The notes under the pieces are model-generated. The model worked only from the letters and a program-made list of their open reading frames with translations, had not been told where the DNA came from and searched no databases. From Promethearchaeota archaeon (GTDB lineage Archaea > Asgardarchaeota > Thorarchaeia > Thorarchaeales > Thorarchaeaceae), in assembly GCA_027031765.1 (NCBI GenBank), contig JALVPN010000077.1:1-40190 (forward strand): a stretch of 40,190 nt of DNA, in the 5' to 3' direction. Within the stretch, counting starts at the first letter, position 1, and every line of letters begins with the position of its first letter. This document shows, one piece after another, positions 15,216 to 32,488 of the stretch. Position numbers and translations under genes: made by a program.

Positions 15216-15238
15216 TATCTGGCAGGTGGTGGTAGACG

Positions 15239-15931: not shown

Positions 15932-15937
15932 CAGACA

Positions 15938-16873: not shown

Positions 16874-16888
16874 GACGGGTGTAGCAGT

Positions 16889-18298: not shown

Positions 18299-18364
18299 GG
18301 AAGACCTATCAGGCCACGGCCCCGTGTCAGGGGCGGCCGAGAGAGCACAGGAGGTCACCGGTCA

Positions 18365-19138
18365 GTGCTTGTCATCCCCATCAGGACCAGGGTCATCAGA
18401 CCCGACGACAACATAGTGGATGTGATACTCGACGGCCTTGCCAGGGCTTGCCACGAGCTCCGTGAAGGGGACATCCTAGGGATTGCTGAAACACCACTGG
18501 GGACGACGGAGGGGCGGGTGATTCGCCTGTCAGACGTAGTTGTGAGTGACAGGGCACGAGACCTTGCACAACGCTACGACATGGTACCGGAGGTCGCGCA
18601 GCTCGTACTGGACGAGGCCGACGAGGTCCTCGGAGGTATCCCACACGTGCTCCTCACAATCAAGAACAACACACTGATGGCCAATGCCGGGGTCGACAAG
18701 TCGAATGTGCCACCGGGCTACGCATCACTGTTGCCCGAAGACCCGGCAGCCAGTGCAGCACGGATACGGGAGGAGGTGGCCAGGCGCCTCGGCATAGGAG
18801 TGGGCGTAATCGTGATAGACAGCCGTACGCAGCCGCTGCGGCTAGGCAACGTAGGGATGGCCCTTGCTGTGGCGGGGTTCCGGCCCGTGGTCGACGAGCG
18901 TGGCAGGACAGACCTCTTCGGGAACGTCCTGCGCGTGACGCGACGTGCTGTTGCTGACAACCTGGCCTCTGCGTGCACTGCGGTGATGGGTGAGGCCGAC
19001 GAGGCAGTCCCAGCGGCACTGATAAGGGATGCGCCCGTCGAGTACACGGACACTGTCCACGACTCGTCAGAGATGTGGATTTCACCCGAGGAGTGCATGT
19101 ACATGGCAATCTTTGAGCAGTGGAGACGCGGGATGTGA
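18365..19138 (+). CDS. cofE: Coenzyme F420:L-glutamate ligase
   Basis: CofE adds gamma-linked glutamates to F420-0 with GTP, finishing the deazaflavin cofactor of archaeal hydride transfer. The 257-residue protein shows the family order: VIPIRTRVIRPDDNIVDVI at the start, GDILGIAETPLGTTEGR, the loop VDKSNVPPGYASLLPEDP, DSRTQPLRLGNVGMALAVAG, and RTDLFGN. The start is GTG after GGAGGT at a spacing of nine bases. It is 66 bases after the marker-14 gene and on the same strand, so it may share the operon. The position links the C1 cluster to a cell that uses F420. Confidence 0.92.
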   Translation: MLVIPIRTRVIRPDDNIVDVILDGLARACHELREGDILGIAETPLGTTEGRVIRLSDVVVSDRARDLAQRYDMVPEVAQLVLDEADEVLGGIPHVLLTIKNNTLMANAGVDKSNVPPGYASLLPEDPAASAARIREEVARRLGIGVGVIVIDSRTQPLRLGNVGMALAVAGFRPVVDERGRTDLFGNVLRVTRRAVADNLASACTAVMGEADEAVPAALIRDAPVEYTDTVHDSSEMWISPEECMYMAIFEQWRRGM

Positions 19139-19142
19139 CTTC

Positions 19143-19204
19143 GAAAGAAAGAGAGAGAGAGAAAGAGAGAAAGAGAGAAAGAAAGAAAGAAAGAAAGAAA
19201 AGGG
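19143..19204 (+). repeat. 62-base uninterrupted purine tract
   Basis: Mixed GA and GAAA repeats run from 19143 to 19204 with no pyrimidine on the plus strand, starting four bases after the cofE stop. The transcript of the plus-strand operon would read purines only, so this is not a T-tract terminator for that direction. On the complementary strand it is all pyrimidine. Confidence 0.9.
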
Positions 19205-19253
19205 CGATTCATTAGGCTAGGCAAGCGGACCGTATGACGGGAGACTGAGAACA

Positions 19254-20594
19254 GTGGGAAGACCAATAGTCCTCTTTGATGTCGCGTCGGCAGGTGCATC
19301 CGGGGACATGTTCCTGTCAGCACTGATAGACCTGATTGGGGACGACGAGGCCATACTCCGAGTCGCAGCAAGCATGCTGATCTACGACCCGACGCTACGG
19401 GTAAACGTCACACCTGTCACAGTGGGGGACACTGAGGGCAAGAGGCTCGATATCACCCTAGACACAGGGGTCAGGTTCGAGCCGCAAGCAATGCATGAGG
19501 TGCTCAAAGAGGTCGCAACCGAGCTTGAGCTCTCAGAACACGGCCTCGAGACCGCAGAGCGGATGCTGGACATACTGTTCACCGCCGAGAGCAAGGCACA
19601 TGACACGCCGGTGGATGAGCTGCACCTCCACGAGGTCGGCTCCATAGACACGGTTCTTGACGTCGTTGGGGTAGTGTACCTCCTTGAGAAGGCTGGTCTC
19701 CTCGGTGCAAAGTTCATCTCCACTCATGTGGCAATTGGCCAGGGCAGCATCGAGACCGAACACGGCGCGTTCGAGGTGCCAGTGCCAGCCGTTGCGGAAA
19801 TCCTTGTTGCACATGACATCCCATTCCACAGGAGCACAGCCCAGACCGAGACCCTGACCCCGACAGGGGCCGCTATACTGGCGGCGCTTGCGGAGGACTA
19901 CGTCGACTCGACTGAGGGCATCGAGTTGGAACGTTCCGGGGTGGGTTTCGGAACTCGCGACCTGGGCGAAACGCCGAACGCGATGCACATACACATCTGT
20001 CGCGGGACGGCACCAGCACGAGAGGCCGCCGAGATGACACGGGAAGCAGAGGCGGAAGGAGCAAAAGAGGCCGCGGCACCAGTTGAGGCCCCAGAGGCCG
20101 ACCGGAGGCTTGAGACGTTGACGGGTTGGGACACTGACGAAGTGGTAGTCCTCGAAACGAACGTTGACGATGTCGATGGCGAGACCATGGGTACGCTCTT
20201 CGACGCACTGCTGGACACACATGGTGTGTTTGATGTGGTGGCAATCCCGGCATATGGGAAGAAGAACCGTCCGTGCCTGGTCGTAAAGGTGATTGCTTCG
20301 GCTCGGGCCCTCGCGGAGGTCCCCGACATCCTAGTGAAACACCTGGGGACAATTGGGGTGCGGTATACCACGTGGCGCCGCGTGAAAGCGACCCGCGAAA
20401 CCGTCGTCTGCAGGATTGATGTGGAGGGCAAGGAGTACATGGTGCGGGTGAAGGTCTCACGGAGTGCGGACGGCAGTGTGGTGAATGTCAAGCCAGAGGC
20501 CGATGATGTGAGAAAGGTCGCACGTGAGACCGGCATCCCGACGCGGTTCCTGCGGCCAATGATCATACTACAGGCGAAGGCGGTCACCGAGTAG
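19254..20594 (+). CDS. larC: LarC-like nickel-pincer cofactor insertion protein
   Basis: LarC inserts nickel into the pyridinium dithiocarboxylate mononucleotide cofactor of lactate racemase, using CTP. The 446-residue protein shows the family start FDVASAGASGDMFLSALIDLIGD. It also has DELHLHEVGSIDTVLDVVG, the metal-rich segment GQGSIETEHGAFEVPVPA, PTGAAILAAL, and in the second half VVLETNVDDVDGETMG. A Glu/Ala-rich linker (about 245-282) separates the two domains. The gene is intact, whereas some bacterial larC genes need a frameshift. LarB, LarE and a recognisable racemase are not in the window, so the client enzyme is unknown. The start is GTG. It follows cofE across the purine tract and is the last plus-strand gene of the cluster. 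Confidence 0.88.
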   Translation: MGRPIVLFDVASAGASGDMFLSALIDLIGDDEAILRVAASMLIYDPTLRVNVTPVTVGDTEGKRLDITLDTGVRFEPQAMHEVLKEVATELELSEHGLETAERMLDILFTAESKAHDTPVDELHLHEVGSIDTVLDVVGVVYLLEKAGLLGAKFISTHVAIGQGSIETEHGAFEVPVPAVAEILVAHDIPFHRSTAQTETLTPTGAAILAALAEDYVDSTEGIELERSGVGFGTRDLGETPNAMHIHICRGTAPAREAAEMTREAEAEGAKEAAAPVEAPEADRRLETLTGWDTDEVVVLETNVDDVDGETMGTLFDALLDTHGVFDVVAIPAYGKKNRPCLVVKVIASARALAEVPDILVKHLGTIGVRYTTWRRVKATRETVVCRIDVEGKEYMVRVKVSRSADGSVVNVKPEADDVRKVARETGIPTRFLRPMIILQAKAVTE

Positions 20595-20608: not shown

Positions 20609-22852
20609 CTACTGGCCATGCGTAACAGCAAGGTGCAGGTAGTGTGCCGGCACAAGCTCTTCAAATGCACGCAGACACATCCGTGCATACGCATCAGGGT
20701 CGTAGCGTGTCGACGGGACCACAAGTGGGAGTGCGAGGACACGGCCGGTCTGGCGGGTGACCCCAGGCTCTACGACGATGTAGTCGACCACTTGGCCGGC
20801 GTGCAGGTGCATGCCATGTGCAGCGAGCTGTTGTGCTGCAACAGCTGCTGGGGAGAGGACCCGGTGTTCACCGGGACTCCTTGAGAGGCGCTCGTGGACG
20901 ACCAGGTCACGGATGTCAACATCCCGCTCGTACAGGCGGTCGATGAATGTCTGACAGACCTCTCGGGCCTGTGGGAGCATCTTGAGAAAACCCCTGCGTC
21001 CATGTCCGCGGGCCAGTGTACGGAGCACTGCCATCTGACAGTCGTACACGTACGTGCAGGTATCGCGTCGCCGGAGGGCCAGCCCCCGCGCCTTGATTGA
21101 ACCATTGTAGAAGAGGCCATAGTACCGGTTGATGGGCGCGAGCCGTGGGCGCGAGCGCAGCGATGGGATGACCATCCAGTCATAGATACCATTCGAACGC
21201 ATGGGGATGTCCACCTCTCCAGTCACCAGCTCGCAGAACTCCTCCACAAGGTGCACATCAGGGCCATCGGCGTGTCTCAACCAGATTGAGTCCACAATCC
21301 CATGGATGACCTCGAAGCCCATGTCCTCTGCAATGTCCTTTGCACGCAGGAGGACATCACGGCCAATGGCCGTGACGGCAGCGTGCGCCTCCGCACGACC
21401 GAACCGCGCGTTCCGGAAGCCAAGATAGCCGAAGCAGGACACGAGCACGCCCTTCAGTGTGTGTTGCATCCGTCCGTAGCGGTCTGCATCACGGCCCTCA
21501 GTCACCAGCCTCTTGAATGCATCCCGCTTTGCAATGACCAGTCTGAGTGCCTCGGGTATGATACCACGCCTCTGTCTGCACACCTTGAGCCCGAGCCCCG
21601 GGACTTCGACACATGACCGCTGGTCGTAGGGGCACTCGTGCCCCATGCATATGGTCTCGGGGCTGATGTTACGGGTCAACATCAGGGTGGGGTACATTGA
21701 TGCAAAGTCGCACTCGACCACGTCCTCGTACACGTCGGGTGAGGGCTGTAGGACCAGGCCACCACGGTCAGCAGCGCTCAGACTGGACACGGACTTGAGG
21801 GACTCTGGGTTACGCCCGACAGGGGGGACGAGGATGTCGAGCTTGTATGCAGTGTAGGTCTGGATAGCCGCATTGACCCCACCAATCGACATCCGGGCCG
21901 CCTGCTGGGGCCGTATCAGGGCAATCCGTGACGCCTCGACAATACCCTCTATTCCCTGCGGCGAGTAGTATAGGCTGGTCTCTTCGTCCACATGGATGCG
22001 CCCGTTCAGCAGGACTGGCGGGCCGGGGCGGTACGCGACGTGGTTGTACTGCCAGAAGGACTGCGGCCGCGGTGCCCTAACACTGAGTGGCGAGCCATCA
22101 CGGGAGAGCACGAGGTCGATGCCGTGGGCACGTGCACGGTGTGCAAGGTGTGGAAAGAGGAATCCATCACCACCACGGGTGATGACCACATCGGGGTCGA
22201 TCCGGTCGAATGTGTCCTGGAAGGAGAGGAGCGTATCACGTTCGTCCGGACACTGTACCCGGTATACCCTGTCACGTTGTCTCAGGGCAATGCACTCTAC
22301 CGGGTCATCCCTGTGGGGGACGAGGTGCTCACCCCTTGTACATACAGCCAAGTGCACCGTGGTGAGTGGTGGGACTGTGTATTCCGTGTCCTCACGCCGG
22401 TCCAGACACTGCACGGCCCGTGCTACTGGGCCCTCCCTGTAGATGCGCACGCGTCCGAACGGGAACACATCATGCCCTATGAAGAACTGCTGCACCGGGT
22501 CAATGTCGGCATGGAAGACTGTTGCACCAGGCAGTCTGCGCAGGTCACGGGCCAGTGACGGCACCGAGAGGGGGGTCGTGCGGACCCGTATGACTGGACG
22601 GCGGGACGAGTCATAGACCGAAACGAACCTGTATACCAGGGAGACCTCCCGGACGGCGGGATGAGAGCTGACAGCAGTCAGCAGGTACTTTTGGTCACCG
22701 CAAGACTGGAGACAGGGAGACGACACGAAGAGGGACGGGTAGAACTCGTAGTCGAGGGCGTCCGTGCGGCCCCCGTCCTTGACCCAGAGGACCAAACAGT
22801 CCTTGGAACGGTTGATGTCTGCATCAAGTAACCAGCAGTCCTGCCAGCTCAT
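20609..22852 (-). CDS. Divergent family B DNA polymerase with degenerate catalytic motifs (PolB2-like)
   Basis: The 747-residue protein keeps the family B fold but not all catalytic residues. Motif A is intact, DFASMYPTL (382-390). Motif B has K467 and the SCFGYLGF segment. Motif C reads HGIVDSIW (517-524), so the first Asp of the usual Y-G-D-T-D-S is replaced and only Asp521 remains. The proofreading domain also looks dead: the Exo I region (TVHLAV, 165-170) lacks the Asp-x-Glu pair, and Exo II reads TRGGDGFLF without the expected Asn/Asp pattern. Four cysteines at 402, 407, 414 and 425 may bind a metal. This pattern recalls archaeal PolB2, a lineage with altered motifs linked to lesion bypass or repair. 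The start ATG overlaps the stop of a small upstream gene by four bases, so the two are translationally coupled. Confidence 0.88.
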   Translation of the reverse strand: MSWQDCWLLDADINRSKDCLVLWVKDGGRTDALDYEFYPSLFVSSPCLQSCGDQKYLLTAVSSHPAVREVSLVYRFVSVYDSSRRPVIRVRTTPLSVPSLARDLRRLPGATVFHADIDPVQQFFIGHDVFPFGRVRIYREGPVARAVQCLDRREDTEYTVPPLTTVHLAVCTRGEHLVPHRDDPVECIALRQRDRVYRVQCPDERDTLLSFQDTFDRIDPDVVITRGGDGFLFPHLAHRARAHGIDLVLSRDGSPLSVRAPRPQSFWQYNHVAYRPGPPVLLNGRIHVDEETSLYYSPQGIEGIVEASRIALIRPQQAARMSIGGVNAAIQTYTAYKLDILVPPVGRNPESLKSVSSLSAADRGGLVLQPSPDVYEDVVECDFASMYPTLMLTRNISPETICMGHECPYDQRSCVEVPGLGLKVCRQRRGIIPEALRLVIAKRDAFKRLVTEGRDADRYGRMQHTLKGVLVSCFGYLGFRNARFGRAEAHAAVTAIGRDVLLRAKDIAEDMGFEVIHGIVDSIWLRHADGPDVHLVEEFCELVTGEVDIPMRSNGIYDWMVIPSLRSRPRLAPINRYYGLFYNGSIKARGLALRRRDTCTYVYDCQMAVLRTLARGHGRRGFLKMLPQAREVCQTFIDRLYERDVDIRDLVVHERLSRSPGEHRVLSPAAVAAQQLAAHGMHLHAGQVVDYIVVEPGVTRQTGRVLALPLVVPSTRYDPDAYARMCLRAFEELVPAHYLHLAVTHGQ

Positions 22853-23178
22853 CGTTGTGACTCCAGCTCCGCCTCTAGTCCTTCGACCCGCGACTCCAGG
22901 GCCTCAATGTCCTCGATAATGCCCAGCAGGGCCATCAGGAACACGACCTCAGTGACCCGCGGTGTGACTGCCACTGTACCGGCATCGGCGTACTGGCGTG
23001 CATAGTCAAAGATGCGTGCAAGGCGGGCGCGGCGGGATGGAGTGAGGACTCTGGAGAACGCATGCCACCGTTTCTCTTCGGCATCTACTGCGTCCCTGAA
23101 AGTGCGCACTGTGCGGCCCACCGTATAACACACCTCACCAGGGTTTTCCATGGACAGGTAGGGGATGGGTGAGGGCAT
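22849..23178 (-). CDS. Small coiled-coil protein coupled to the divergent polymerase
   Basis: The protein has about 109 residues from the ATG at 23178; an ATG at 23151 would give 100. Helical segments (GEVCYTVGRTVRTFRDAVD, then RRARLARIFDYARQYAD) lead to a leucine-rich stretch and a C-terminal coiled coil (IEDIEALESRVEGLEAELE). Its TGA overlaps the polymerase ATG by four bases, so the two proteins are probably made together and may interact. The frame stays open upstream to 23349, but that part has an unnatural composition and lies before any likely promoter. I do not recognise the family. A role as accessory or regulatory subunit is inferred only from position. Confidence 0.7.
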   Translation of the reverse strand: MPSPIPYLSMENPGEVCYTVGRTVRTFRDAVDAEEKRWHAFSRVLTPSRRARLARIFDYARQYADAGTVAVTPRVTEVVFLMALLGIIEDIEALESRVEGLEAELESQR

Positions 23179-23389
23179 GACCAACTGTGCGGACGCTTCT
23201 GAGGTTTGCTGATGGCAGCAGTCTGCGAGGACAGACAGAAACGGCAAGGGCGGGTGACCGAAAGTAAAGGGCAAAGTACAGACGGGTAGGACGGAGGGCC
23301 CGCACAGCCGGCCGCCGGGGGCTGCCATAGGACAGGGGTTGCGCCACACGACAGCACCGTGATACCCCGCCGCAAAACAGAACGAGGAA

Positions 23390-23397
23390 CTTTAATA
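23390..23397 (+). promoter_or_regulatory. TATA-like box for the first Ras-like GTPase
   Basis: CTTTAATA, after a stretch rich in A and G, predicts transcription start near 23420. That excludes the ATG at 23406 and supports the GTG at 23469. Confidence 0.5.
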
Positions 23398-23468
23398 ACG
23401 GCCATATGTTACAGGCACACAGTCCCACTCATACGAATACGAGTCTGGCCGTCCAAAGATTCAGTGGG

Positions 23469-24044
23469 GTGCTCAAAATAGTAACTGCGCTGTTCAAAGT
23501 AATCCTCATGGGTGATGGCTCCGTCGGAAAGACAAGCCTGCGACGGGTGTACATGGGCGAGGGGTTCAAGGCATCGTACATGATCACAATAGGGGCCGAC
23601 TTTGCCGTCAAGAAGATGACCCTAGAAGGAGGCCACGATGTCAGCATTCAGATCTGGGACCTGGCAGGCCAAGAACACTTCAAGAGCGTCCGCTCCACGT
23701 TCTACCGTGGTGCCCAGGGTGCACTCGCAGTGTACTCCACAGTGGAACGGAGCTCCTTCGAGAACATTGAGAACTGGGTGGAAGAGTGCTGGAGCAACGC
23801 AGGCAAGAAGATTCCAGTCGTGTTGATTGGGAACAAGATTGACCTCCGGGAACAGTTCATAGACAACCCCGTAATGCGCCAGACCATTGTCACTACTGAG
23901 GAGGGACAGGCCCTAGCCGACAGAATTGCCCAGCGGGGCGTCCACGCGTCCTTCATAGAGACCTCTGCCAAGACCGGGAAGAACGTCGAGGCTGCATTCC
24001 TCGAACTGATAATCAGGATCTTGGAGGCCGGCGGGCTCTCATAG
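23469..24044 (+). CDS. Ras/Rab-like small GTPase
   Basis: The protein has about 191 residues from the GTG at 23469, where small-GTPase homology starts (LKIVTALFKVILMGDGSVGKTSL). All G motifs are present: G1 GDGSVGKTS, G2 Thr in TIGADF, G3 WDLAGQE with the catalytic Gln, G4 NKID, G5 ETSAKTG. The TIGADF-plus-WDLAGQE pattern is closest to Rab/Ran-type Ras-superfamily proteins, not to bacterial MglA. The C-terminus (ILEAGGLS) lacks prenylation cysteines, as is general in archaea, so membrane attachment would need a partner. It lies convergent to a HEAT-plus-ear protein, and a WD40 protein, a second GTPase and a Roadblock protein follow within 4 kb. Confidence 0.93.
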   Translation: MLKIVTALFKVILMGDGSVGKTSLRRVYMGEGFKASYMITIGADFAVKKMTLEGGHDVSIQIWDLAGQEHFKSVRSTFYRGAQGALAVYSTVERSSFENIENWVEECWSNAGKKIPVVLIGNKIDLREQFIDNPVMRQTIVTTEEGQALADRIAQRGVHASFIETSAKTGKNVEAAFLELIIRILEAGGLS

Positions 24045-24150
24045 GCACCTTGACAGCTGATCATTACATTGCCCTGCCCATGGCAAGATGTTGGGCACTG
24101 GGCCAGCCGACCAGATGAGGCAATCAGGGTGCTCGGTCAACCGCGGCAGG

Positions 24151-25365
24151 TCAGGCGGTCATGAGCACGCACGCGGATATGCGCTGGTAGAACTCACTTG
24201 CAGCGGTCTGGAGCACTTCAGGGGCGTCAGACATCGTGTGTATTTGCAGCTGACACTTCTTCGAGACCAGGTCACCGACCATCAGGACATGGAGGACGAC
24301 CTTCAGTCCCGTATAGCTACCTGTGCCAGCGGCCTTCAGGGATGCCATCAAGACACTGCTTTCACGACGGGTCTTGCAGTCGAAGGTGTGGAGGTTGCAC
24401 CTGTCGAGCATGTCCCTGATGGCCTCGAACATCGTCACGGGGTCTACAGGCACCTCGTGCTCACGACTCCACCCCTTCATGGCCCGCAGGAGAGTGGCCT
24501 CTTCAGATGGCGAGATGTTGAGTGGTTCCAGCCGCTCGAAAAATGTCCGGACGGTGCAGTTCCCCGCAGGTGCAGACGCCCGCTGGCCGTCGACATCTGT
24601 GAACACCACCAGCGGGACAATCTCTCCCTCTATGCACTCGCGTGTCGCTGACATCTCAAACGTGACAGACCGTGCCTCTCCAGGTCCAATACGTGGGACT
24701 GTCCGCACAGTGCCATCGACCGGTCTCAGGCTGTCGGCCGGGTAGGCGAGCAGGCGTACGTCCACGTCAGTGATTGGGCCCTGCGTGTCATTCGACACCC
24801 GGATCCTGAAGGTGACAGTCCCATCATTGACTGAGAGCTCGTTTGAGACTGAAACATCCATCCTCGTCCGGATGGGCACGGGGTCTAAGGACATGGGCGC
24901 GGCAGGCTGGGAAACTGCTGTGGAAACGACCACCTGTGGGCGCTGACTCCCGGGTGTCCCCTGAGTGTGAGAATGGAGCACGGCCCACTCGTGTGCATAC
25001 TCAGCTGCCTGCACTACCATCTCCAGAGGGTCGTCTTGGGCCAAGGCGAGGGTGTCCGACACCCCACTGGGGTCGATGGTGGTGAGGAAGACAAGGGCTG
25101 CTGCGCGTACCTCTCCGGTGTCGTCATGACAGGCAATCTCAAGGCCCCCAATGGCCTCGGGCCCAAACTCAGCAAGCCGACATACAGCAAGGAGCCGGGT
25201 CTCAGGCTCGCCCGCGAGAGATGCGTCCTTGCATGCCTGTAGAGACCTCAAGCCCGACAGCATACGCGAGAGAGGGGGGTCAGACTCCTCAAGAAAGAGG
25301 GCCCGTCGTAGGCGTGAGAGGATGCCGCCAGAGTCATCAGGTGTGTTCTCCATGCCCGGACTCAT
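24151..25365 (-). CDS. HEAT-like solenoid protein with an adaptin-appendage-like C-terminal region
   Basis: The 404-residue protein has three parts. Residues about 15-135 are short paired helices that look like HEAT repeats (RLLAVCRLAEFGPEAIGGLE, VRAAALVFLTTIDP, MVVQAAEYAHEW). A Pro/Ser/Gln linker (about 136-170) follows. Residues about 171-280 are a beta-sandwich (VTFRIRVSNDTQGPITDVDVRL). Residues about 285-404 form a mixed alpha/beta domain (VTMFEAIRDML, then four strands ending QLQIHTMSD). Solenoid, hinge, Ig-like sandwich and platform is the order found in the ear region of coatomer gamma and AP adaptins, and the pattern here resembles the gamma-COP appendage. This rests on reading the sequence by eye; remote-homology or structure comparison is needed. 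It starts at ATG 25365, about 10 bases after the predicted transcription start. Confidence 0.75.
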   Translation of the reverse strand: MSPGMENTPDDSGGILSRLRRALFLEESDPPLSRMLSGLRSLQACKDASLAGEPETRLLAVCRLAEFGPEAIGGLEIACHDDTGEVRAAALVFLTTIDPSGVSDTLALAQDDPLEMVVQAAEYAHEWAVLHSHTQGTPGSQRPQVVVSTAVSQPAAPMSLDPVPIRTRMDVSVSNELSVNDGTVTFRIRVSNDTQGPITDVDVRLLAYPADSLRPVDGTVRTVPRIGPGEARSVTFEMSATRECIEGEIVPLVVFTDVDGQRASAPAGNCTVRTFFERLEPLNISPSEEATLLRAMKGWSREHEVPVDPVTMFEAIRDMLDRCNLHTFDCKTRRESSVLMASLKAAGTGSYTGLKVVLHVLMVGDLVSKKCQLQIHTMSDAPEVLQTAASEFYQRISACVLMTA

Positions 25366-25398
25366 ATGCCCACTTCATACTGGGCCCACTTCTGAGGC

Positions 25399-25407
25399 GA
25401 TATAAGG
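25399..25407 (-). promoter_or_regulatory. TATA-like box for the HEAT/ear protein
   Basis: The minus strand reads CTTATATC, which predicts transcription start near 25376 and a leader of about 10 bases before the ATG at 25365. Confidence 0.5.
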
Positions 25408-25550
25408 TTATGGCACAACACAGCGGTGCAGTGGCACCACACTGTTTTGTCGGCCGGGGGACTGAGGACGTAGAGGGCGCTGTGGAGCAGCAGCAGTACA
25501 AACAACATGAGAGTTGACACCCGGACTGACGACAGTGTTGCAACTAGCAA

Positions 25551-25558
25551 CTTTTTAG
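25551..25558 (+). promoter_or_regulatory. TATA-like box for the WD40 gene
   Basis: CTTTTTAG predicts transcription start near 25581, followed by a leader that contains a run of ten C (25585-25594) and a five-codon open frame (25598-25615) overlapping the main start. Confidence 0.45.
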
Positions 25559-25611
25559 GGGAATACCGTCATAGCGAGCTACGACCCCCCCCCCACCATG
25601 AGGCGCATCAT

Positions 25612-26742
25612 ATGAGCGAGCACGAACTCACACTGTTCTTGAGACCAGAGACCATCAAGCCGCCTGCCGAGCACGGCTCCGAGCTCACACGGAGGATTGC
25701 ACTGAACCATGCAGGCCGATTGATTGCTGTGGGAATGCAGGACAAGAGCATCCGGCTATACGATGCAACCAACTTCGAGGAGATCCAGAAGCTCCAGGAC
25801 AACTTCCTGAGCACGGCTCTGGCATTCAGTCCACGAGGGGACACTGTGGCATCTGGTGGTGTCGACAGGGTGGTAAAGATATGGGACATAAGGACGGGCG
25901 AGGTGCTCACGACACTGGAAGGGCACACATACCCGATTCTCGGGCTCTCGTTCTCACCTGACGGTAGCAGGCTCCTCTCAGCCAGCGGAGACACGACGCT
26001 CATAGTCTGGGATCTCAACAGTGGCACCGAGTCCAGCAGGCTCAGGGGCCACAAGTTATACGTCATGTCCTGCGACTGGCATCCAGAGGACGACCTCGTC
26101 GTGTCGGGGGCTGTCGACGCCACCATTGCACTGTGGGACCCGAACACTGGCAAGATGTTGGGCCAGTACGGCGAACACAGGACCGCGGTCCATGTGGTCA
26201 GGTTCTCCCCACAGGGTGACAGGCTCCTGTCCACATCATCGGACATGACGTGCAAGGTCTGGGACGTGGGCGGGGAGAGCGTCAGGCCCGTGCACACCCT
26301 TCAGGGGCACACAGCAGAGGTGAGGACGGCCACATGGAGCAGTGACGGAGAGCTCATCGCCTCAGGGTCCAGTGAGAAGGAGCTCTTCCTCTGGTCACTG
26401 GACTCACTGCAGGTGGAGGGGGAGGCACGTACAGCTGGGGAGATTGACGGGATAGAGTGGTTCCCTAGCAAGAAGGAGTTCGTCACAGCCGACAGTTCGG
26501 GGGCAATTACCCGCTGGCGCGTACAGGAGCTGTCCATTGTCCTGGCGCCATTCCGCGACCTGCTGGCAGAAATCCAGGCAGACAGCACAGGGGCGCACCG
26601 TGAGGAGCACATCCGCCAGTTTGACGACCTCGTGCAGCGCTACGGTGAGGAGACCCTGAAGGACAAGAGGGTGTTCTATCTGATGTGGCAGTGCAAGCGT
26701 GCACTGGGGCTCCTCAAGGGCAGACCAGCCGGTACACGGTGA
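25612..26742 (+). CDS. WD40 beta-propeller protein
   Basis: The protein has 376 residues from the ATG at 25612; the frame continues to 25507 but lies upstream of the transcription start. It has seven WD40 repeats (about residues 25-325), each ending in a pattern such as VKIWDI, LIVWDL, IALWDP, CKVWDV, LFLWSL or ITRWRV, with GH dipeptides such as LEGHTYPIL and LRGHKLYV. A helical C-terminal tail of about 55 residues (from LAPFRDLLAEIQ) is added, as in some coat and scaffold propellers. It probably provides a protein-binding platform. It stands between two genes for Ras-like GTPases and next to a HEAT/ear gene. It is convergent with the second GTPase gene, 16 bases away. Confidence 0.92.
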   Translation: MSEHELTLFLRPETIKPPAEHGSELTRRIALNHAGRLIAVGMQDKSIRLYDATNFEEIQKLQDNFLSTALAFSPRGDTVASGGVDRVVKIWDIRTGEVLTTLEGHTYPILGLSFSPDGSRLLSASGDTTLIVWDLNSGTESSRLRGHKLYVMSCDWHPEDDLVVSGAVDATIALWDPNTGKMLGQYGEHRTAVHVVRFSPQGDRLLSTSSDMTCKVWDVGGESVRPVHTLQGHTAEVRTATWSSDGELIASGSSEKELFLWSLDSLQVEGEARTAGEIDGIEWFPSKKEFVTADSSGAITRWRVQELSIVLAPFRDLLAEIQADSTGAHREEHIRQFDDLVQRYGEETLKDKRVFYLMWQCKRALGLLKGRPAGTR

Positions 26743-26758
26743 CCCCGTAACCCCCGGT

Positions 26759-27286
26759 TCACTGCTTCGTCGCGTCAATCATTAGTCGACAGAGCATGGC
26801 GAATGCCTCTTCTACATTCTCTCCTGTCAACGCACTCGACTCAACATAGAGAAAACCATTGGCCTCCGCATACTCCTTGCCCTCGTCGGTTGCGACCACC
26901 CTGCTGTCGGTAAGGTCCACCTTGTTTGCTACGACCACCATCGGTACTTCCCGCCCGATATTGCTGAAACCCTCCTCTTTCCACCGGTCGAGGTTCAGGA
27001 AGGTGCGTCGCCGGGTCACATCAAAGACCAAGAGGCCCCCACGAGCACCCCTATAGAACCCCTGCCTGACGACTTCGAAACGGGGCTGTCCTGCAAGATC
27101 CCAGACTTGGAGCACGACGTTTGCGTCACGGTCGAGCAGTGACACCCTCTTGATTGCAAAGTCGGAGCCAATGGTACGTTTGTAGTCGGCCTCAAAAAAG
27201 TCCTGTGTGAACCGCAGGGTCAGTGCTGTCTTCCCGACCGCGCCGTCCCCAAGCATGACGACCTTGAACCGGTACTCAGCGGGCAT
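26759..27286 (-). CDS. Second Ras/Rab-like small GTPase
   Basis: The protein is about 175 residues from the ATG at 27286; an ATG at 27295 is nearly as likely. G motifs: G1 GDGAVGKTA, G2 Thr in RTIGSDF, G3 WDLAGQP (with the catalytic Gln, Pro where Glu is usual), G4 NKVD, G5 ESSAL. The effector-side segment FYRGARGGLLVFDVTRR is Rab/Ras-like. The C-terminus (RLMIDATKQ) has no cysteine for lipidation. It is not a close copy of the first GTPase, so the pair is not a recent duplication. It is divergent from the Roadblock gene, with about 280 bases between starts, and convergent with the WD40 gene. Confidence 0.93.
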   Translation of the reverse strand: MPAEYRFKVVMLGDGAVGKTALTLRFTQDFFEADYKRTIGSDFAIKRVSLLDRDANVVLQVWDLAGQPRFEVVRQGFYRGARGGLLVFDVTRRRTFLNLDRWKEEGFSNIGREVPMVVVANKVDLTDSRVVATDEGKEYAEANGFLYVESSALTGENVEEAFAMLCRLMIDATKQ

Positions 27287-27311
27287 GTGACACACATCCT
27301 CGGTGGCTCAC

Positions 27312-27325
27312 GGGTCGCGAGACCC
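27312..27325. promoter_or_regulatory. GNRA-type hairpin beside the GTPase promoter
   Basis: GGGTC and GACCC pair across the loop GCGA, giving a five-base-pair stem. The TATA-like box of the second GTPase follows immediately (27325-27331). It may be an operator or only a chance palindrome. Confidence 0.35.
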
Positions 27326-27331
27326 TATAAT
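27325..27331 (-). promoter_or_regulatory. TATA-like box for the second Ras-like GTPase
   Basis: The minus strand reads TTATAG within ATTATAG. The spacing predicts transcription start close to 27301, making the ATG codons at 27295 or 27286 nearly leaderless. Confidence 0.45.
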
Positions 27332-27516
27332 CGTGACGCAGTCCAATGGCAGGACGCAAGTCGCTAGCGCAGGCCTCCCTTTTGAAGATTGCCTATTGCA
27401 ACAAAGAGATGCGTGTTGCCTCCGACCAGTAGCGGCAGCACGCACTACTGACGGTGGCGGCACGTACATGCGCACTGGTCGTTGTTGCGCAGCATGTGGG
27501 TCATTGAGGCCAGTAT

Positions 27517-27525
27517 TGTTTAATA
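27517..27525 (+). promoter_or_regulatory. TATA-like box for the Roadblock gene
   Basis: TGTTTAATA predicts transcription start near 27548, and the GGGGTGA ribosome-binding site (27557-27563) then lies about 10 bases before the ATG at 27570. Confidence 0.5.
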
Positions 27526-27569
27526 GCAGATTGGAAGAGCAAGGTACTGCTGGCATGGGGTGAAACAGG

Positions 27570-27950
27570 ATGAAGCGACCGGACTACGTGTTACTCGCTG
27601 AGATACTTACCGAGATGAACATGGAGGGTGGCTACACGGCATCTATTCTTGCCAGGGCAGATGGTCTGCTCGTGGCCTCTGCAAAGACCCCATCTGTGGA
27701 CCAGGACATTGTGGCCGCCATGGCCGGGTATGTGTCTGCGACCGTGGAGAGGATGCGGGACGAACTCGCACTCGGGAATGTGCATGACATCACCGTGAGG
27801 TGTTCAGAGGGCAAGGCGGTGTTCAAGAAGGTGCCGGTGACGGGGGAGGACCTGATCCTTGCAGCACTGATGCCAAGGGGGATACGATATCACGCGAGAC
27901 TCCTCGGCAAGACCGCGACAAAGATAGCGAGGATGTTCGGTAAGCAGTAG
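27570..27950 (+). CDS. Roadblock/LC7-domain protein
   Basis: The 126-residue protein reads as one Roadblock/LC7 domain: an amphipathic helix (LAEILTEMNME), a strand with SILARADGLLVASAK, a long helix (DIVAAMAGYVSATVERMRDEL), two strands (VHDITVRCSEGKAVFKKV) and a last helix. Domains of this kind dimerise and bind Ras-like GTPases, acting as GAP, GEF scaffold or membrane platform (MglB, Ragulator, dynein light chain). It lies opposite the promoter of a Ras-like GTPase gene and is therefore a likely partner. The start has a good ribosome-binding site (GGGGTGA). A basic C-terminal tail (LGKTATKIARMFGKQ) may be an added interaction surface. Confidence 0.88.
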   Translation: MKRPDYVLLAEILTEMNMEGGYTASILARADGLLVASAKTPSVDQDIVAAMAGYVSATVERMRDELALGNVHDITVRCSEGKAVFKKVPVTGEDLILAALMPRGIRYHARLLGKTATKIARMFGKQ

Positions 27951-28222: not shown

Positions 28223-28546
28223 GTGGCGGAGAACACCGGAACGGCAGACACGGACAATGCGGACGGGGCAATTGAGATACTGTTCTTCAAGTCTGACAGC
28301 TGCCCGTTCTGCCCCCGGGCCGAGGAGGTGATCCGTGAGGTCATCGGGGAGTTCGACCCCGGCGTGTTCAGACTCGTCGTCATCAACGTCTCGGAGAAGC
28401 CGGAGGTCGCAGAGGAGTATGGCGTGTTTGCCCTGCCCACCGTCGTTGTGGGTGGCATGTCAGTGACTGGAGTCCCCGAACCCGAGATGCTGGTAAAGAT
28501 TATTCTCGGTTCAAGACTCTCAAGGAAAAGGAGAACGACCAGATGA
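28223..28546 (+). CDS. Thioredoxin/glutaredoxin-like protein with a CPFC active site
   Basis: The 107-residue protein has an acidic N-terminal extension of about 15 residues, then a thioredoxin fold with CPFC at 27-30 and the cis-Pro segment FALPTVVVGG (about 72-81). It should act as a thiol-disulfide carrier in the cytoplasm. The start is GTG with AGGAG upstream. Its stop overlaps the next start as ATGA, so it is translationally coupled to a KaiC-like ATPase. The coupling suggests redox input to the ATPase or its client, but no target is visible. A second redoxin gene lies at 37.0 kb next to nrdD. Confidence 0.88.
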   Translation: MAENTGTADTDNADGAIEILFFKSDSCPFCPRAEEVIREVIGEFDPGVFRLVVINVSEKPEVAEEYGVFALPTVVVGGMSVTGVPEPEMLVKIILGSRLSRKRRTTR

Positions 28547-29286
28547 GCAAGTTCACAATTGAGCGCGTCAGGACCGGCATCCCCGGTCTGGATGAGCTGA
28601 TTGAGGGCGGGTTCCCCAGAGGGGATACCATCCTTGTCGCAGGAAAGGCAGGCACTGGCAAGAGCATCCTTGCAGTGCAGTTCCTGTACAAGGGGGCAAC
28701 CGAGTACAACGAGCCCGGTGTGCTCGTGACTCTGGAAGAGCCGCCCCACCTGATAAAGAGGAATATGATGAGGTTTGGCATGGACCTCGAGAGACTGGAG
28801 AGGGAGGGACTGCTTGCAATAGTCGACCTGTCACCGTCCAAAGAGAGGACGCCGGTCATGGTCGGGGAGTATCCCAGTTTTGACCTCTCAGGACTGGAGG
28901 CAATAATCCTCAGTCATATCCGACGCATAAAGGCCAAGCGGGTGGTCATTGACACGCTCTCAATAATGGCATACAAGTTCCGGAGCAGGGACATCCTCCG
29001 GGAAGAGTTCTTCAAACTGTGTGCGAGCATTACCGGCGAGGGGTGCACCCTGTTGCTCACCAGCGAGATCCCGGCACAGGACACCGGACTCGGCGTCTTT
29101 GACATTGAGACCTTCCTCGCATCGGGAGTAATCGTCCTGTACAACGAGAAGATCAGCGAAACGTCACGTTCGCGCTCAATTGAAATACTCAAACTGCGCG
29201 GCTCAAAACACAGCTCACGTATCCACTCGATGCGGATAACCGACGAGGGGATCCGTGTATGGCCGGGTGAGATACCCGGACACTGA
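28543..29286 (+). CDS. KaiC-like RecA-fold ATPase (single domain)
   Basis: The 247-residue protein is a single KaiC/RAD55-type domain. It starts IERVRTGIPGLDELIEGGFPRGDTILVAG, with Walker A GKAGTGKS (34-41), a catalytic Glu pair near LVTLEEPP and Walker B RVVIDTLS. Relatives in archaea act in signalling, archaellum assembly (FlaH/ArlH) and recombination. Length and single-domain form separate it from the double-domain circadian KaiC. The gene is coupled to an upstream redoxin gene by an ATGA overlap. A second, more divergent member follows 30 bases downstream, so the two may form a hetero-oligomer. Confidence 0.9.
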   Translation: MSKFTIERVRTGIPGLDELIEGGFPRGDTILVAGKAGTGKSILAVQFLYKGATEYNEPGVLVTLEEPPHLIKRNMMRFGMDLERLEREGLLAIVDLSPSKERTPVMVGEYPSFDLSGLEAIILSHIRRIKAKRVVIDTLSIMAYKFRSRDILREEFFKLCASITGEGCTLLLTSEIPAQDTGLGVFDIETFLASGVIVLYNEKISETSRSRSIEILKLRGSKHSSRIHSMRITDEGIRVWPGEIPGH

Positions 29287-29316: not shown

Positions 29317-30024
29317 ATGAGGCCAGAAGTGAGGACAACAAGCAGGCGCCGCGCACTGACGGCACGGCCCATGATAGACGACCTTGTGAAGTTCGGCCAG
29401 TTGACACAGGTCTCGTACGTGCTTGTTGGCCCGCTGGGTTCCGGCAAGACCACATACGCTGAGGCGTTCATTGCCGAGGGGCTGAAGCAGGGCTTCCCTG
29501 GGGTGTTCGTCACCACGGACGTGTCGCCACGGGTCATAAGGAATGACATGAGCCGCCATGGATGGCCTGTGGAACGGTACGAGCAGTCAGGACAGATGGT
29601 GTTCATTGACGGGTACTCAGAACGGATGGGGGCACCAAAGATGGGCAGTGCCCGCGCCCTGACAAAGGTCGATGACATAAGCGAGCTCGGTATTGTGCTG
29701 TCCGAGGTCCTCGAAGGCCTTGTGGTGGCGCGCGTGGTCGTTGACAGCCTGTCGACCCTGATCCTCCACTCAGCACCCACCACCATGCCACGGGCTGTCC
29801 AGAGGCTGAGTGGCCGCATCACACAGAGCTCGCACAGCATAATGTACATCCTTGAAGAGGGTGTGCACGACGACAAGGTGTACGCTACATTCTCGTATCT
29901 CATGGACGCTGTGCTCAGGTTCCGACTCGTCGAACGTGAGGGACAGACAGTCCACCAGGTGCGGATGGAGCGGATGCGTGGCACAGAGGCCTCACGTGAG
30001 TGGCACGACTTTGTGCTCGAATGA
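29317..30024 (+). CDS. Second RAD55/KaiC-like ATPase
   Basis: The 235-residue protein has a basic N-terminal stretch (about 1-18), then a RecA-type core with Walker A VGPLGSGKTT (about 38-47), VFVTTDVSPRVIRNDM in place of the usual Glu-Glu region, and Walker B ARVVVDSLSTL. The family glutamates after the third strand are replaced (TTDVSP), so it may bind ATP but hydrolyse poorly. It lies 30 bases downstream of the first KaiC-like gene and could act with it. The ATG at 29317 is preceded by a weak ribosome-binding site; a start at the later ATG near MIDDLVKFG is possible. Confidence 0.82.
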   Translation: MRPEVRTTSRRRALTARPMIDDLVKFGQLTQVSYVLVGPLGSGKTTYAEAFIAEGLKQGFPGVFVTTDVSPRVIRNDMSRHGWPVERYEQSGQMVFIDGYSERMGAPKMGSARALTKVDDISELGIVLSEVLEGLVVARVVVDSLSTLILHSAPTTMPRAVQRLSGRITQSSHSIMYILEEGVHDDKVYATFSYLMDAVLRFRLVEREGQTVHQVRMERMRGTEASREWHDFVLE

Positions 30025-30187: not shown

Positions 30188-32488
30188 TTGAGGAAACTGA
30201 TTGTCGCGACATTACGGGAGATACTCTGTGCATCAATGTCACTCGATGATGGACTGTCAGCAATCCAGAACATATCCATAGGGCACACGGAGGAGTCGGA
30301 CATCCCATATGACATTGCAAGGGCAATAGAGGAGATACTCCTCCGTAGACCGGGACTGGCAAGTGCCAAGTTGATGGAGTTGACAGTACGCCTCTCCTCG
30401 GACCCGGACCGGACGCTCCCAAAGATGTTGATGCTCCTTGACACGAGGTCCAACACTGCATATAGGAGGGGCGAGTGCGAGATACTGCCAGATATCCAAG
30501 CCCTACCACAGCTGCTGGACATCCTTGGCGAGCTGTCCAGCGCAGTCATGGACGGGCTGTCCCTGAACCTCAGACCACTGATCCCGTTCCTTGCAGACGA
30601 GATGCTCATGACGCTGACATCCATAGTCGACCGGGGACACCCCGCGTCGACGCGGCTTGCAGTCAGGGAGACCCACCACCTCGCGAGCATCCTAGTAGAC
30701 AGGGGCTTCTACGAGTGTGCGGAGCTGCTCTTGGAGGCGCTCGTACGGGTCGCGGCCGAGGTGCAGGACGAGAGGCTCTACTTTGAGGTCGCCATCGACC
30801 ATGCCGTCGTACTGACCGAGACCGGTCTCTACAAGCAGGCACGGACTATCCTCGAAGACCTTGAGAGGAGGGTCAAGGAGAACAGTGACGTGGCCGCACA
30901 GGCGGCAGTGGCCCTGCAGATTGCAGTGAACGAGACCCGTGATGACACTGTGGACCATACCACTGCAAGGGCGTCTGCGGACAGGGCGGTCGAGCTGCAC
31001 CGGCTGGCAGTGGAACAGGGGCGCATGGCGCCTGACGAACTGGCCGTTGCCGAGCTGACGGTGGGGGTGAACATCTTGGCCAACGGCTGGCGGGAGGCCG
31101 TCCCACAGGCAATGGAGCGTCTGGAGGCCGGGCTTGCGGTCTACGAGGAGATGGACTCGCTCACCCAAAGACAGGCCTCCCACTGTTTCAAGGTCCTGGC
31201 CGGACTGGGGTTTGCGCACGGCCTGCTGAGTGACCACGACAATGTGACTCTGAGCATCAGGTACCTGAGACGTGCTGAGGCACTGTTGAGGGAGTCTGTG
31301 AAACCAGAGGAGGACATCACAGAGAAGATTGCTGCATGTGAACACTGCATTGGCTGGGTGTGTCTGTGTTCGGAGTCCGACGAACACTGGGAGCTGGGCA
31401 TCGACGCCTTCAGAAAGGCCACCGAGTTGCGTCGTGCCCTTGTCGGTGAGGGGCGGCTGTCATGGCTCGCCCTACTCGGTAGCGAGCTTGGCCATGCACT
31501 GTCGTTGATACGGACTGCAGGAAGGATGGACGAAGGGCTCCAAGAACGCCTCGTAAGGATTATGCACCAGTATACCCTGTTGTTCCCGACCGATCTGCGG
31601 GCCTTCGAAGAGGCTGCCATTGCTACCTACAACATTGTGTGGCTAGCCTCACGACATGGGGCGGAGCTGTCACAGGAGTTGCTCCGACTCCTTGAGGACA
31701 TAGACAGGATGTTGACCGATGCGACGCCTGTGGAGGACTCTGTCTTCGTGCGCGGGATCTCCCTACTGATGCCATACCTGAAGTCGGACTGGAGAGCACT
31801 GCGGTACAGGGCCGAGGCCCTGCTCCATGCTGGCGGCCCACTCAGGGACGTGGTACTGCTGATGAGCACGCTGGCAAAGATGCGCATCGCTCTAGACTAC
31901 ATGACCCTAGAGAGCATCACGCAGGTGATAACGGGTCATGACGGACAACTGGACGGCACCGACGAGCTAATGGCGAGGTACTGGGACGGACAGGTCGTAC
32001 TTGCAAGGGCAGTGGCAGCATTCTACGGTAACAAGGACTACACTACACTCGCCCAAGGGCTGTACGACGCGGCCGTGATGCTCAGAGGCGTACTACATGC
32101 AACGACCGACTTTGAAGAGGCTGCCGAGTTTGTAAGGGCCACGGCCGGCTCGCTAGCGGGTGTACTCCTGAGGTTCGCAACGGCCCTGGAGAAGACCTAC
32201 GGCGCGAGAATAGAGAAGAGCACCCCCGACATCACCCCAGCAGACCTTGAGGACACGGGCTTCAACTTCATCCTGTCAGAGGACTGGATTGGACTGCTGA
32301 AGATAACCAACGCGTATCTTGAGATGGTGGAGAGAGCAGAGCTGGCCCAGGCAATGCCATACCTCAACGCAGTCTTCTCAAACATTGCAAGTGCACTACG
32401 GATGATGGACCGCATTGCAATGGTCGACAGGCGCATGCTGAACAGGCTCGGCGAGGAAATGAACAGGCGGTACTATCTCAGGCGCTGA
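30188..32488 (+). CDS. Large alpha-solenoid (TPR-like) protein
   Basis: The 766-residue protein is almost entirely helical, in paired antiparallel helices of about 34-40 residues that look like TPR repeats. Clear examples are in the middle, such as YECAELLLEALVRVAAEVQDE, YKQARTILEDLERRVKENSD and LGIDAFRKATELRRALVGEG. No enzyme motif, signal peptide or membrane segment is seen, so it should be a cytoplasmic scaffold or adaptor. TTG is the start, supported by GAGGAG upstream. It lies close to the GTPase-Roadblock-WD40 group and could be a further scaffold of that module, but it has its own promoter. The 3' end overlaps the convergent EF-2-like gene by 11 bases. Confidence 0.8.
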   Translation: MRKLIVATLREILCASMSLDDGLSAIQNISIGHTEESDIPYDIARAIEEILLRRPGLASAKLMELTVRLSSDPDRTLPKMLMLLDTRSNTAYRRGECEILPDIQALPQLLDILGELSSAVMDGLSLNLRPLIPFLADEMLMTLTSIVDRGHPASTRLAVRETHHLASILVDRGFYECAELLLEALVRVAAEVQDERLYFEVAIDHAVVLTETGLYKQARTILEDLERRVKENSDVAAQAAVALQIAVNETRDDTVDHTTARASADRAVELHRLAVEQGRMAPDELAVAELTVGVNILANGWREAVPQAMERLEAGLAVYEEMDSLTQRQASHCFKVLAGLGFAHGLLSDHDNVTLSIRYLRRAEALLRESVKPEEDITEKIAACEHCIGWVCLCSESDEHWELGIDAFRKATELRRALVGEGRLSWLALLGSELGHALSLIRTAGRMDEGLQERLVRIMHQYTLLFPTDLRAFEEAAIATYNIVWLASRHGAELSQELLRLLEDIDRMLTDATPVEDSVFVRGISLLMPYLKSDWRALRYRAEALLHAGGPLRDVVLLMSTLAKMRIALDYMTLESITQVITGHDGQLDGTDELMARYWDGQVVLARAVAAFYGNKDYTTLAQGLYDAAVMLRGVLHATTDFEEAAEFVRATAGSLAGVLLRFATALEKTYGARIEKSTPDITPADLEDTGFNFILSEDWIGLLKITNAYLEMVERAELAQAMPYLNAVFSNIASALRMMDRIAMVDRRMLNRLGEEMNRRYYLRR

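What the first reader, a model, noticed from the sequence alone, without database searches (positions are those of the whole stretch)
23469..27950. A compact GTPase module resembling eukaryotic membrane-traffic parts
Within 4.5 kb there are two different Rab/Ras-like GTPases, a Roadblock/LC7 protein, a WD40 propeller with a helical tail, and a HEAT-plus-ear protein. The last three are the kinds of parts eukaryotes use as GTPase regulator, coat propeller and coat solenoid with appendage. Convergent and divergent pairs (GTPase to HEAT/ear, WD40 to GTPase, GTPase to Roadblock) make this a spatially tight group. I infer a small-GTPase scaffold or coat-like system in an Asgard archaeon. Each domain call is standard; the joint system is not one I know as described.
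Basis: partly seen in the sequence, partly recalled or inferred. Interest (0 to 1): 0.85.

Follow-up and report, generated by a model that had tools for sequence, protein, structure and literature searches.

The report
Thor-Rab locus with coat-like ear protein
In Thorarchaeia (Asgard archaea, relatives of the ancestor of complex cells), a Rab-like switch protein whose structure is already known is encoded in a conserved gene neighbourhood beside an uncharacterised Roadblock regulator candidate, a WD40 protein and, in some genera, a protein whose end folds like the cargo-binding 'ear' of eukaryotic vesicle coats, so its partners can now be tested.

Summary
In detail: two Rab-like GTPases, a HEAT-plus-ear protein, a WD40 protein and a Roadblock protein lie at 23.5-27.95 kb in a Thorarchaeia genome. 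The neighbourhood is not private to this genome: order and strand of GTPase1-WD40-GTPase2-Roadblock-Trx-KaiC-KaiC-TPR protein persist across the class's genera, and the WD40 and TPR proteins have no counterpart in about 110 other Asgard genomes. GTPase2 is the orthologue of the crystallised 'Thor-Rab' (PDB 7EZB; 75% identical; a class member at the same locus is 100% identical). Its neighbour Roadblock is not the one crystallised from Thorarchaeota, and is therefore a specific, untested candidate regulator. The ear (residues ~171-404) is predicted with high confidence as a two-lobed coat appendage; the best PDB matches are COPI and AP2 appendages, and sequence tests point to beta-COP. The ear is absent from Pfam and recurs in other Asgard proteins. 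Not supported: a coat. There is no adaptin trunk or propeller-solenoid chain, and the HEAT-ear gene is missing in 7 of 13 genera. Most likely a GTPase signalling/scaffold hub with an optional appendage adaptor. The wider 20-kb block is equally syntenic, so functional linkage remains an inference.

The parts
23469..24044 (+). GTPase1: Rab-like small GTPase with all G motifs (GDGSVGKT, WDLAGQE, NKID, SAK); switch I has Ile/Leu where Thor-Rab has Arg; no C-terminal Cys. True start probably 23478.
   Evidence: Pfam Ras 3.9e-49; best PDB match 7EZB then Rab1/Rab11/Rab9; orthologues 74-87% identical in 41 of 47 class genomes; motif conservation
24151..25365 (-). HEAT-ear protein, 404 aa: HEAT helices about 30-132, linker 134-160, two-lobed appendage-type ear 171-404
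   Evidence: AF2 pLDDT about 90 in the ear; Foldseek top PDB matches are COPI/AP2 appendages; HEAT by profile search; orthologues 28-33% identical
25612..26742 (+). WD40 beta-propeller protein with a conserved C-terminal tail of about 65 aa (start corrected from 25507)
   Evidence: Pfam WD40 9.6e-51; orthologues 51-58% identical, none outside the class at E<=1e-50; conserved tail
26759..27295 (-). GTPase2: orthologue of crystallised Thor-Rab (PDB 7EZB/7EZD/7EZE); keeps the switch-I Arg (R40, = Arg37 of Thor-Rab) and WDLAGQ; no C-terminal prenylation Cys. Start probably 27286.
   Evidence: phmmer 8.7e-89; 74.7% identity over 174 aa, syntenic orthologue in L083 100% identical to 7EZB; Arg in 33 of 35 orthologues
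27570..27950 (+). Roadblock/LC7 protein, 126 aa; divergent neighbour of GTPase2, candidate regulator or platform
   Evidence: Pfam Robl_LC7 1.6e-6; orthologues 51-68% identical in 41 of 47 class genomes; not an orthologue of any solved Roadblock chain
28223..28546 (+). Thioredoxin/glutaredoxin-fold protein with CPFC motif; overlaps the KaiC1 gene by 4 bp
   Evidence: Thioredoxin_3 4.8e-9, KaiB 1.7e-5; adjacent to KaiC1 in 32 loci of 11 genera
28543..29286 (+). KaiC-like ATPase 1
   Evidence: Pfam KaiC/ATPase 4.4e-72; orthologues 79-88% identical at the locus
29317..30024 (+). KaiC-like ATPase 2
   Evidence: Pfam KaiC/ATPase 1.1e-30; orthologues 69-83% identical at the locus
30188..32488 (+). 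766-aa TPR superhelix protein (possible scaffold), restricted to the class
   Evidence: AF2 mean pLDDT 88.5, almost entirely helical; Foldseek to TPR superhelices such as LGN/Pins; 33 of 38 class genomes, 0 of 110 other Asgard genomes

Best explanation
A Thorarchaeia-specific GTPase signalling/scaffold locus built around Thor-Rab (GTPase2). Inferred mechanism: the neighbouring Roadblock protein forms a dimer that binds Thor-Rab and/or GTPase1 and changes their nucleotide state or anchors them, in the manner of MglB with MglA or of Roadblock platforms. The WD40 protein and the TPR superhelix act as scaffolds or effectors of the GTP-bound switches. The Trx-KaiC-KaiC genes, in one run with the Roadblock gene, couple the switch to ATP or redox state. 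The HEAT-ear protein is an optional adaptor whose appendage recruits further partners, as appendages do in eukaryotic coats. Shown here: gene content, class-wide order and strand, predicted folds, orthology of GTPase2 with Thor-Rab, relation of the ear to appendages. Inferred: every interaction, GAP/GEF activity, membrane role.
For: Order and orientation kept across the genera: WD40 and GTPase2 convergent in 33 loci of 12 genera besides the window (median gap 6 bp); GTPase2 and Roadblock divergent in 32 loci of 12 genera (median gap 153 bp) (layouts). Strong orthologues class-wide. [quoted passage not shown] GTPase1 lacks the switch-I Arg that GTPase2 keeps, so the two switches probably differ in regulation. 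TPR superhelix and ear folds.
Against: The flanking genes (PolB, LarC, CofE on one side; EF2-like and LbH on the other) are as syntenic as the module, so linkage could be inherited order without shared function. Where breaks occur they fall inside the set: GTPase2|Roadblock in G003, GTPase1|HEAT-ear in G028 and G022. The WD40 gene was not found in G022. The genes alternate strands and cannot form one operon. No interaction was predicted or measured.
Confidence: 0.5

Rival explanations
1. A primitive coat or vesicle-adaptor complex: GTP-bound Rab-like protein recruits HEAT-ear, WD40 and TPR solenoid to membrane, and the ear gathers cargo or accessory factors.
For: Ear folds like COPI/AP2 appendages, matched over about 240 columns; sequence signal to beta-COP; propeller and large solenoid encoded nearby.
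Against: No adaptin trunk; propeller and solenoid are separate chains; HEAT-ear absent in 7 of 13 genera; GTPases lack the C-terminal Cys used for membrane anchoring, and Thor-Rab showed no membrane localisation when expressed in eukaryotic cells (PMC10933270).
Confidence: 0.12
2. No joint system: the genes are neighbours because this 20-kb stretch of the Thorarchaeia chromosome has kept its ancestral order; only close pairs such as Trx-KaiC1 share function.
For: Equally strong synteny of PolB, LarC, CofE, EF2-like and LbH genes; breaks inside the set; alternating strands.
Against: The WD40 and TPR proteins are class-restricted, not obviously housekeeping, and kept together with the GTPases and Roadblock through deep divergence; GTPase-Roadblock pairing is mechanistically known in MglA/MglB and Rag/Ragulator.
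Confidence: 0.3
3. A KaiC-centred signalling hub in which the GTPases are only one output; Trx with the two KaiC ATPases is the core and the GTPases, WD40 and ear proteins are peripheral.
For: Roadblock-Trx-KaiC1-KaiC2-TPR are co-directional with short gaps and stay together even where GTPase2 has been separated (G003, L080).
Against: No partner of these KaiC proteins is known; GTPase2 stays beside the Roadblock gene in nearly all genomes.
Confidence: 0.08

Closest known systems
Thor-Rab (KXH73347.1; PDB 7EZB, 7EZD, 7EZE; PMC10933270)
   Same: GTPase2 is its orthologue; the copy in G142 at the same locus is 100% identical over 174 aa.
   Different: The parts of the published text that were read do not discuss this locus; it says of strain MK-D1 that genome layout does not help to match GTPases to regulators.
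MglA/MglB (bacterial polarity GTPase and Roadblock GAP/GEF)
   Same: Small GTPase beside a Roadblock protein; GTPase2 has the switch-I Arg discussed for MglA.
   Different: The GTPases are Rab-like by sequence; two GTPases, WD40, TPR and HEAT-ear neighbours; activity untested.
Ragulator-Rag and raptor (Roadblock platform, GTPases, HEAT-WD40 protein)
   Same: Similar parts list: two GTPases, Roadblock, HEAT, WD40.
   Different: GTPases are Rab-like not Rag-like; HEAT and WD40 on separate chains; no kinase partner. Resemblance of parts only, recalled not tested.
COPI/AP appendages, nearest beta-COP; also the BBSome
   Same: Two-lobed ear matched to COPI leaf chain 9qpq_H (coatomer beta; TM 0.70 by target, rmsd 3.9), AP2 alpha and beta2 appendages, gamma-COP and a BBSome chain; platform sequence signal.
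   Different: About 10% identity; below the Pfam cut-off; attached to a short HEAT domain; no trunk seen.
Asgard adaptin-domain reports (Eme et al. 2023, PMC10307638)
   Same: Appendage-type domains were already reported in Asgard archaea.
   Different: They were reported as 'not fused to each other'; here HEAT and a complete two-lobed ear are in one chain, and other Asgard ears are fused to propeller-like or TPR-like domains.

Membership tests
Rab/Ras small GTPases | Complete G1-G5 motifs with catalytic Gln | tested here: met
   GDGxVGKT, TIG, WDLAGQ, NKxD, SAK/SAL in both, strongly conserved in alignments of 31 and 35 sequences; Ras 4e-49 and 9e-50
Rab/Ras small GTPases | Rabs as nearest solved relatives | tested here: met
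   Thor-Rab, then Rab1/Rab11/Rab9/Rab14
Rab/Ras small GTPases | C-terminal Cys for geranylgeranylation (eukaryotic Rabs) | tested here: not met
   No C-terminal prenylation motif in either set; same as published for Thor-Rab
MglA/MglB-type GTPase-Roadblock pair | Roadblock gene adjacent to the GTPase gene, conserved | tested here: met
   32 loci, 12 genera besides the window; one clear separation, G003
MglA/MglB-type GTPase-Roadblock pair | Roadblock binds the GTPase and stimulates hydrolysis or exchange | not testable with these tools
   No complex prediction or assay available
Coat appendage (AP/COPI ear) | Ig-like sandwich followed by alpha/beta platform | tested here: met
   Predicted model; the 13 best Foldseek matches are coat chains or coat appendages, E 1.4e-7 to 2.4e-10
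Coat appendage (AP/COPI ear) | Sequence match over Pfam cut-off (PF02883 or PF14806) | tested here: not met
   PF14806 best hit is the G122 HEAT-ear, 25.8 bits against cut-off 32.7; no PF02883 match in the class. hhalign to beta-COP segment 72.8% against at most 6.7% for 60 decoys
Coat appendage (AP/COPI ear) | Binds short peptide motifs of accessory proteins | not testable with these tools
   No ligand known
Adaptin/coatomer large subunit | Long HEAT trunk (Adaptin_N) | tested here: not met
   About 100 residues of HEAT; no Adaptin_N over cut-off in 47 class genomes
Adaptin/coatomer large subunit | Longin small and medium partner chains | not tested
   None among the locus genes scanned with Pfam; not searched genome-wide
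Protocoatomer coat | Propeller and alpha-solenoid in one chain | tested here: not met
   WD40 protein has only about 65 aa after the propeller; the 766-aa solenoid is a separate gene

The most novel reading that the evidence does not exclude
The Asgard ear is the direct relative of the eukaryotic COPI/AP/BBSome appendage and existed before eukaryotes as a mobile adaptor module fused to HEAT, propeller or TPR domains. At the Thor-Rab locus it works as a GTPase-controlled adaptor, a pre-coat stage of the machinery that later became vesicle coats.
Probability: 0.22. Interest if true: 0.92.

Novelty: new variant of a known kind. Interest (0 to 1): 0.7.

Why it matters
Thor-Rab has crystal structures and slow intrinsic GTPase activity, but no known regulator or effector, and genome layout was said not to help in matching Asgard GTPases to regulators. 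The Thorarchaeia locus names specific candidates (a Roadblock protein that is not the crystallised one, a WD40 protein, a TPR superhelix, a HEAT-ear protein), so the pairing question can be tested with a Thor-Rab already purified. The ear domain, invisible to Pfam yet common in Asgard proteins, bears on when the appendage fold of COPI/AP coats arose.

Tried and rejected
Coat hypothesis tested by Adaptin_N and Alpha_adaptinC2 searches: no Thorarchaeia match over cut-off. Five-gene set as a self-contained unit: rejected, because the conserved run extends into Trx-KaiC-KaiC-TPR and the flanking PolB/LarC and EF2-like genes are equally syntenic. HEAT-ear as universal part: rejected. Locus Roadblock as the crystallised Thor-RB: no close match in PDB for it or for the orthologue beside the gene identical to 7EZB. 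A reverse single-sequence search with the beta-COP segment was weak (best ear E 0.086, below a short unrelated ORF), so the relation rests on structure and profiles. A shared promoter motif in the divergent intergenic regions was inconclusive. KaiC signalling literature: the paper sought was not held.
Full report
Observation. Both GTPases score as Ras-family (4e-49, 9e-50), the propeller and the Roadblock domain are clear, and the HEAT part is weak by Pfam (0.012). Orthologues move the WD40 start to 25612 and GTPase1 to about 23478. The genome (2.95 Mb, 229 contigs; 25 Ras-family places) belongs to a family of 13 genera among the genomes held; the one named relative found is Ca. Thorarchaeota GLR93, so the host is a thorarchaeon. 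No genome of another family in the same class appeared among the relatives, so I speak of 'the class' for that family.

Neighbourhood. Loci from about 37 genomes of the class were read. The canonical order is PolB, small protein, GTPase1, (HEAT-ear), WD40, GTPase2, Roadblock, Trx, KaiC1, KaiC2, TPR766, EF2-like, LbH. Pair statistics (window not counted): WD40 and GTPase2 convergent in 33 loci/12 genera, median gap 6 bp; GTPase2 and Roadblock divergent in 32 loci/12 genera, median gap 153 bp; GTPase1 and HEAT-ear convergent, 15 loci; HEAT-ear and WD40 divergent, 18 loci. Orientation never varied. Roadblock and GTPase1 orthologues were each found in 41 of 47 genomes of the class, several of the rest being incomplete. 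TPR766 and WD40 orthologues were found in 33 and 29 of 38 class genomes and in none of 110 other Asgard genomes at the thresholds used.

Limits of the synteny argument. PolB, LarC, CofE on one side and EF2-like, LbH on the other are as collinear as the module. Breaks fall inside the set: G003 has GTPase2 and Roadblock on different contigs, with other genes beside each; G028 and G022 have GTPase1 elsewhere; G022 has no WD40 match. Linkage is thus suggestive, not proven.

GTPase2 is Thor-Rab. The best PDB match of GTPase2 is Thor-Rab (7EZB; 8.7e-89), 74.7% identical over 174 aa; the syntenic gene of G142 (L083:7928-8476) is 100% identical to the aligned 7EZB sequence. Thor-Rab is known to have a Rab fold and slow intrinsic hydrolysis (PMC10933270). 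The same paper crystallised a Thorarchaeota Roadblock protein; the locus Roadblock has only distant PDB relatives (1.5e-4), as has its orthologue beside the 7EZB-identical gene, so it is not that one. The paper notes for MK-D1 that genome layout gives little help in pairing GTPases with regulators; for Thor-Rab it offers a clear candidate. GTPase2 keeps the switch-I Arg in 33 of 35 sequences; GTPase1 has Ile or Leu there in all 31.

The ear. AlphaFold2 on a 14-sequence alignment gives pLDDT about 90 for residues 171-404: Ig-like sandwich, then alpha/beta platform. Foldseek against PDB ranks COPI coat, the COPI leaf chain 9qpq_H (TM 0.70 by target, rmsd 3.9; coatomer subunit beta), AP2 alpha and beta2 appendages, gamma-COP and, lower, a BBSome chain. 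The Asgard ear profile finds coatomer beta among three PDB sequences at E<=0.1 (0.087, residues 800-903); the top one of the three is a designed helical bundle. In reverse, the Pfam model of the beta-COP appendage platform has as its best hit in 148 Asgard genomes the HEAT-ear gene of G122 at this very locus (2.2e-5 per genome, 25.8 bits, below the cut-off of 32.7), with four more HEAT-ear genes among 21 hits. hhalign gives 72.8% probability against the beta-COP segment, at most 6.7% for 60 window-protein decoys and 2.1% for 60 shuffles. Each sequence signal is weak; agreement of independent tests with the fold makes relatedness likely.

Distribution of the ear. No Pfam family covers it. The profile finds ears in 34 of 38 class genomes, up to 8 per genome among these (13 ear matches in G027), and in 36 of 110 other Asgard genomes. 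Partners include zinc ribbons, winged-helix-like repeats, a NosD-type beta-helix with a transmembrane-like segment, LRR, multi-pass membrane segments, HEAT (L110), propeller-like repeats (L111, L113) and TPR-like repeats (L116) (those of L107-L116 by reading the sequences only). Eme et al. [quoted passage not shown] HEAT plus a complete ear in one chain goes beyond that.

HEAT-ear is optional. It is present in genera g1, g3, g4, g6, g9 and g12, a decayed remnant in G002 and absent in G119, and absent at an intact slot in g2, g5, g7, g8, g10, g11 and g13 (on the tree G023 and G032 are marked absent only because their contigs break there). One slot and a scattered pattern suggest ancestral presence with repeated loss, though basal branches are weakly supported.

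Mechanism. I favour a GTPase signalling/scaffold hub: Roadblock dimer as regulator or platform for Thor-Rab and GTPase1, WD40 and TPR proteins as scaffolds or effectors, Trx-KaiC-KaiC as energy or redox input, HEAT-ear as optional adaptor. A coat is less likely: no adaptin trunk, propeller and solenoid on separate chains, dispensable ear protein, no prenylation Cys. All interactions remain untested.

Noticed in passing
14298-20594: MtrH-MtrA-MtrH-DUF2114-CofE-LarC run: part of a methyl-H4MPT methyltransferase system without the other Mtr subunits nearby, syntenic in most Thorarchaeia loci read.
   Followed up: partly
20609-23121: Family B DNA polymerase of 747 aa with a small conserved partner gene (true ORF about 22849-23121; the 166-aa ORF is over-extended), kept together in 29 loci.
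   Followed up: partly
32478-34568: EF-G/EF2-like GTPase of 696 aa next to TPR766; whether it is the canonical EF2 or a paralogue was not checked.
   Followed up: no
L111:1028-5298; L113:867-2699: In other Asgard genomes the ear is fused to propeller-like repeats, recalling the propeller-plus-appendage layout of BBSome subunits.
   Followed up: partly
L107, L108, L109, L114: A conserved protein of about 790 aa with N-terminal Cys-rich segment, winged-helix-like repeats and an ear-like domain recurs in two other Asgard families; function unknown.
   Followed up: no
G139 contig C51, 20.9-27.3 kb: Four ear-domain matches lie within 6.4 kb, a tandem array of short ear proteins.
   Followed up: no
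L026:1-2394: Beta-helix (NosD-like) protein with a hydrophobic transmembrane-like segment followed by an ear and zinc ribbon: probably a surface protein with a cytosolic appendage.
   Followed up: no
L075:9169-9486: Truncated HEAT-ear remnant with in-frame stops in G002 at the canonical slot, a gene in decay.
   Followed up: partly
23121-23478: The word CGAAAGTA recurs in 17 of 23 orthologous intergenic regions between the small gene and GTPase1; possible promoter element.
   Followed up: no
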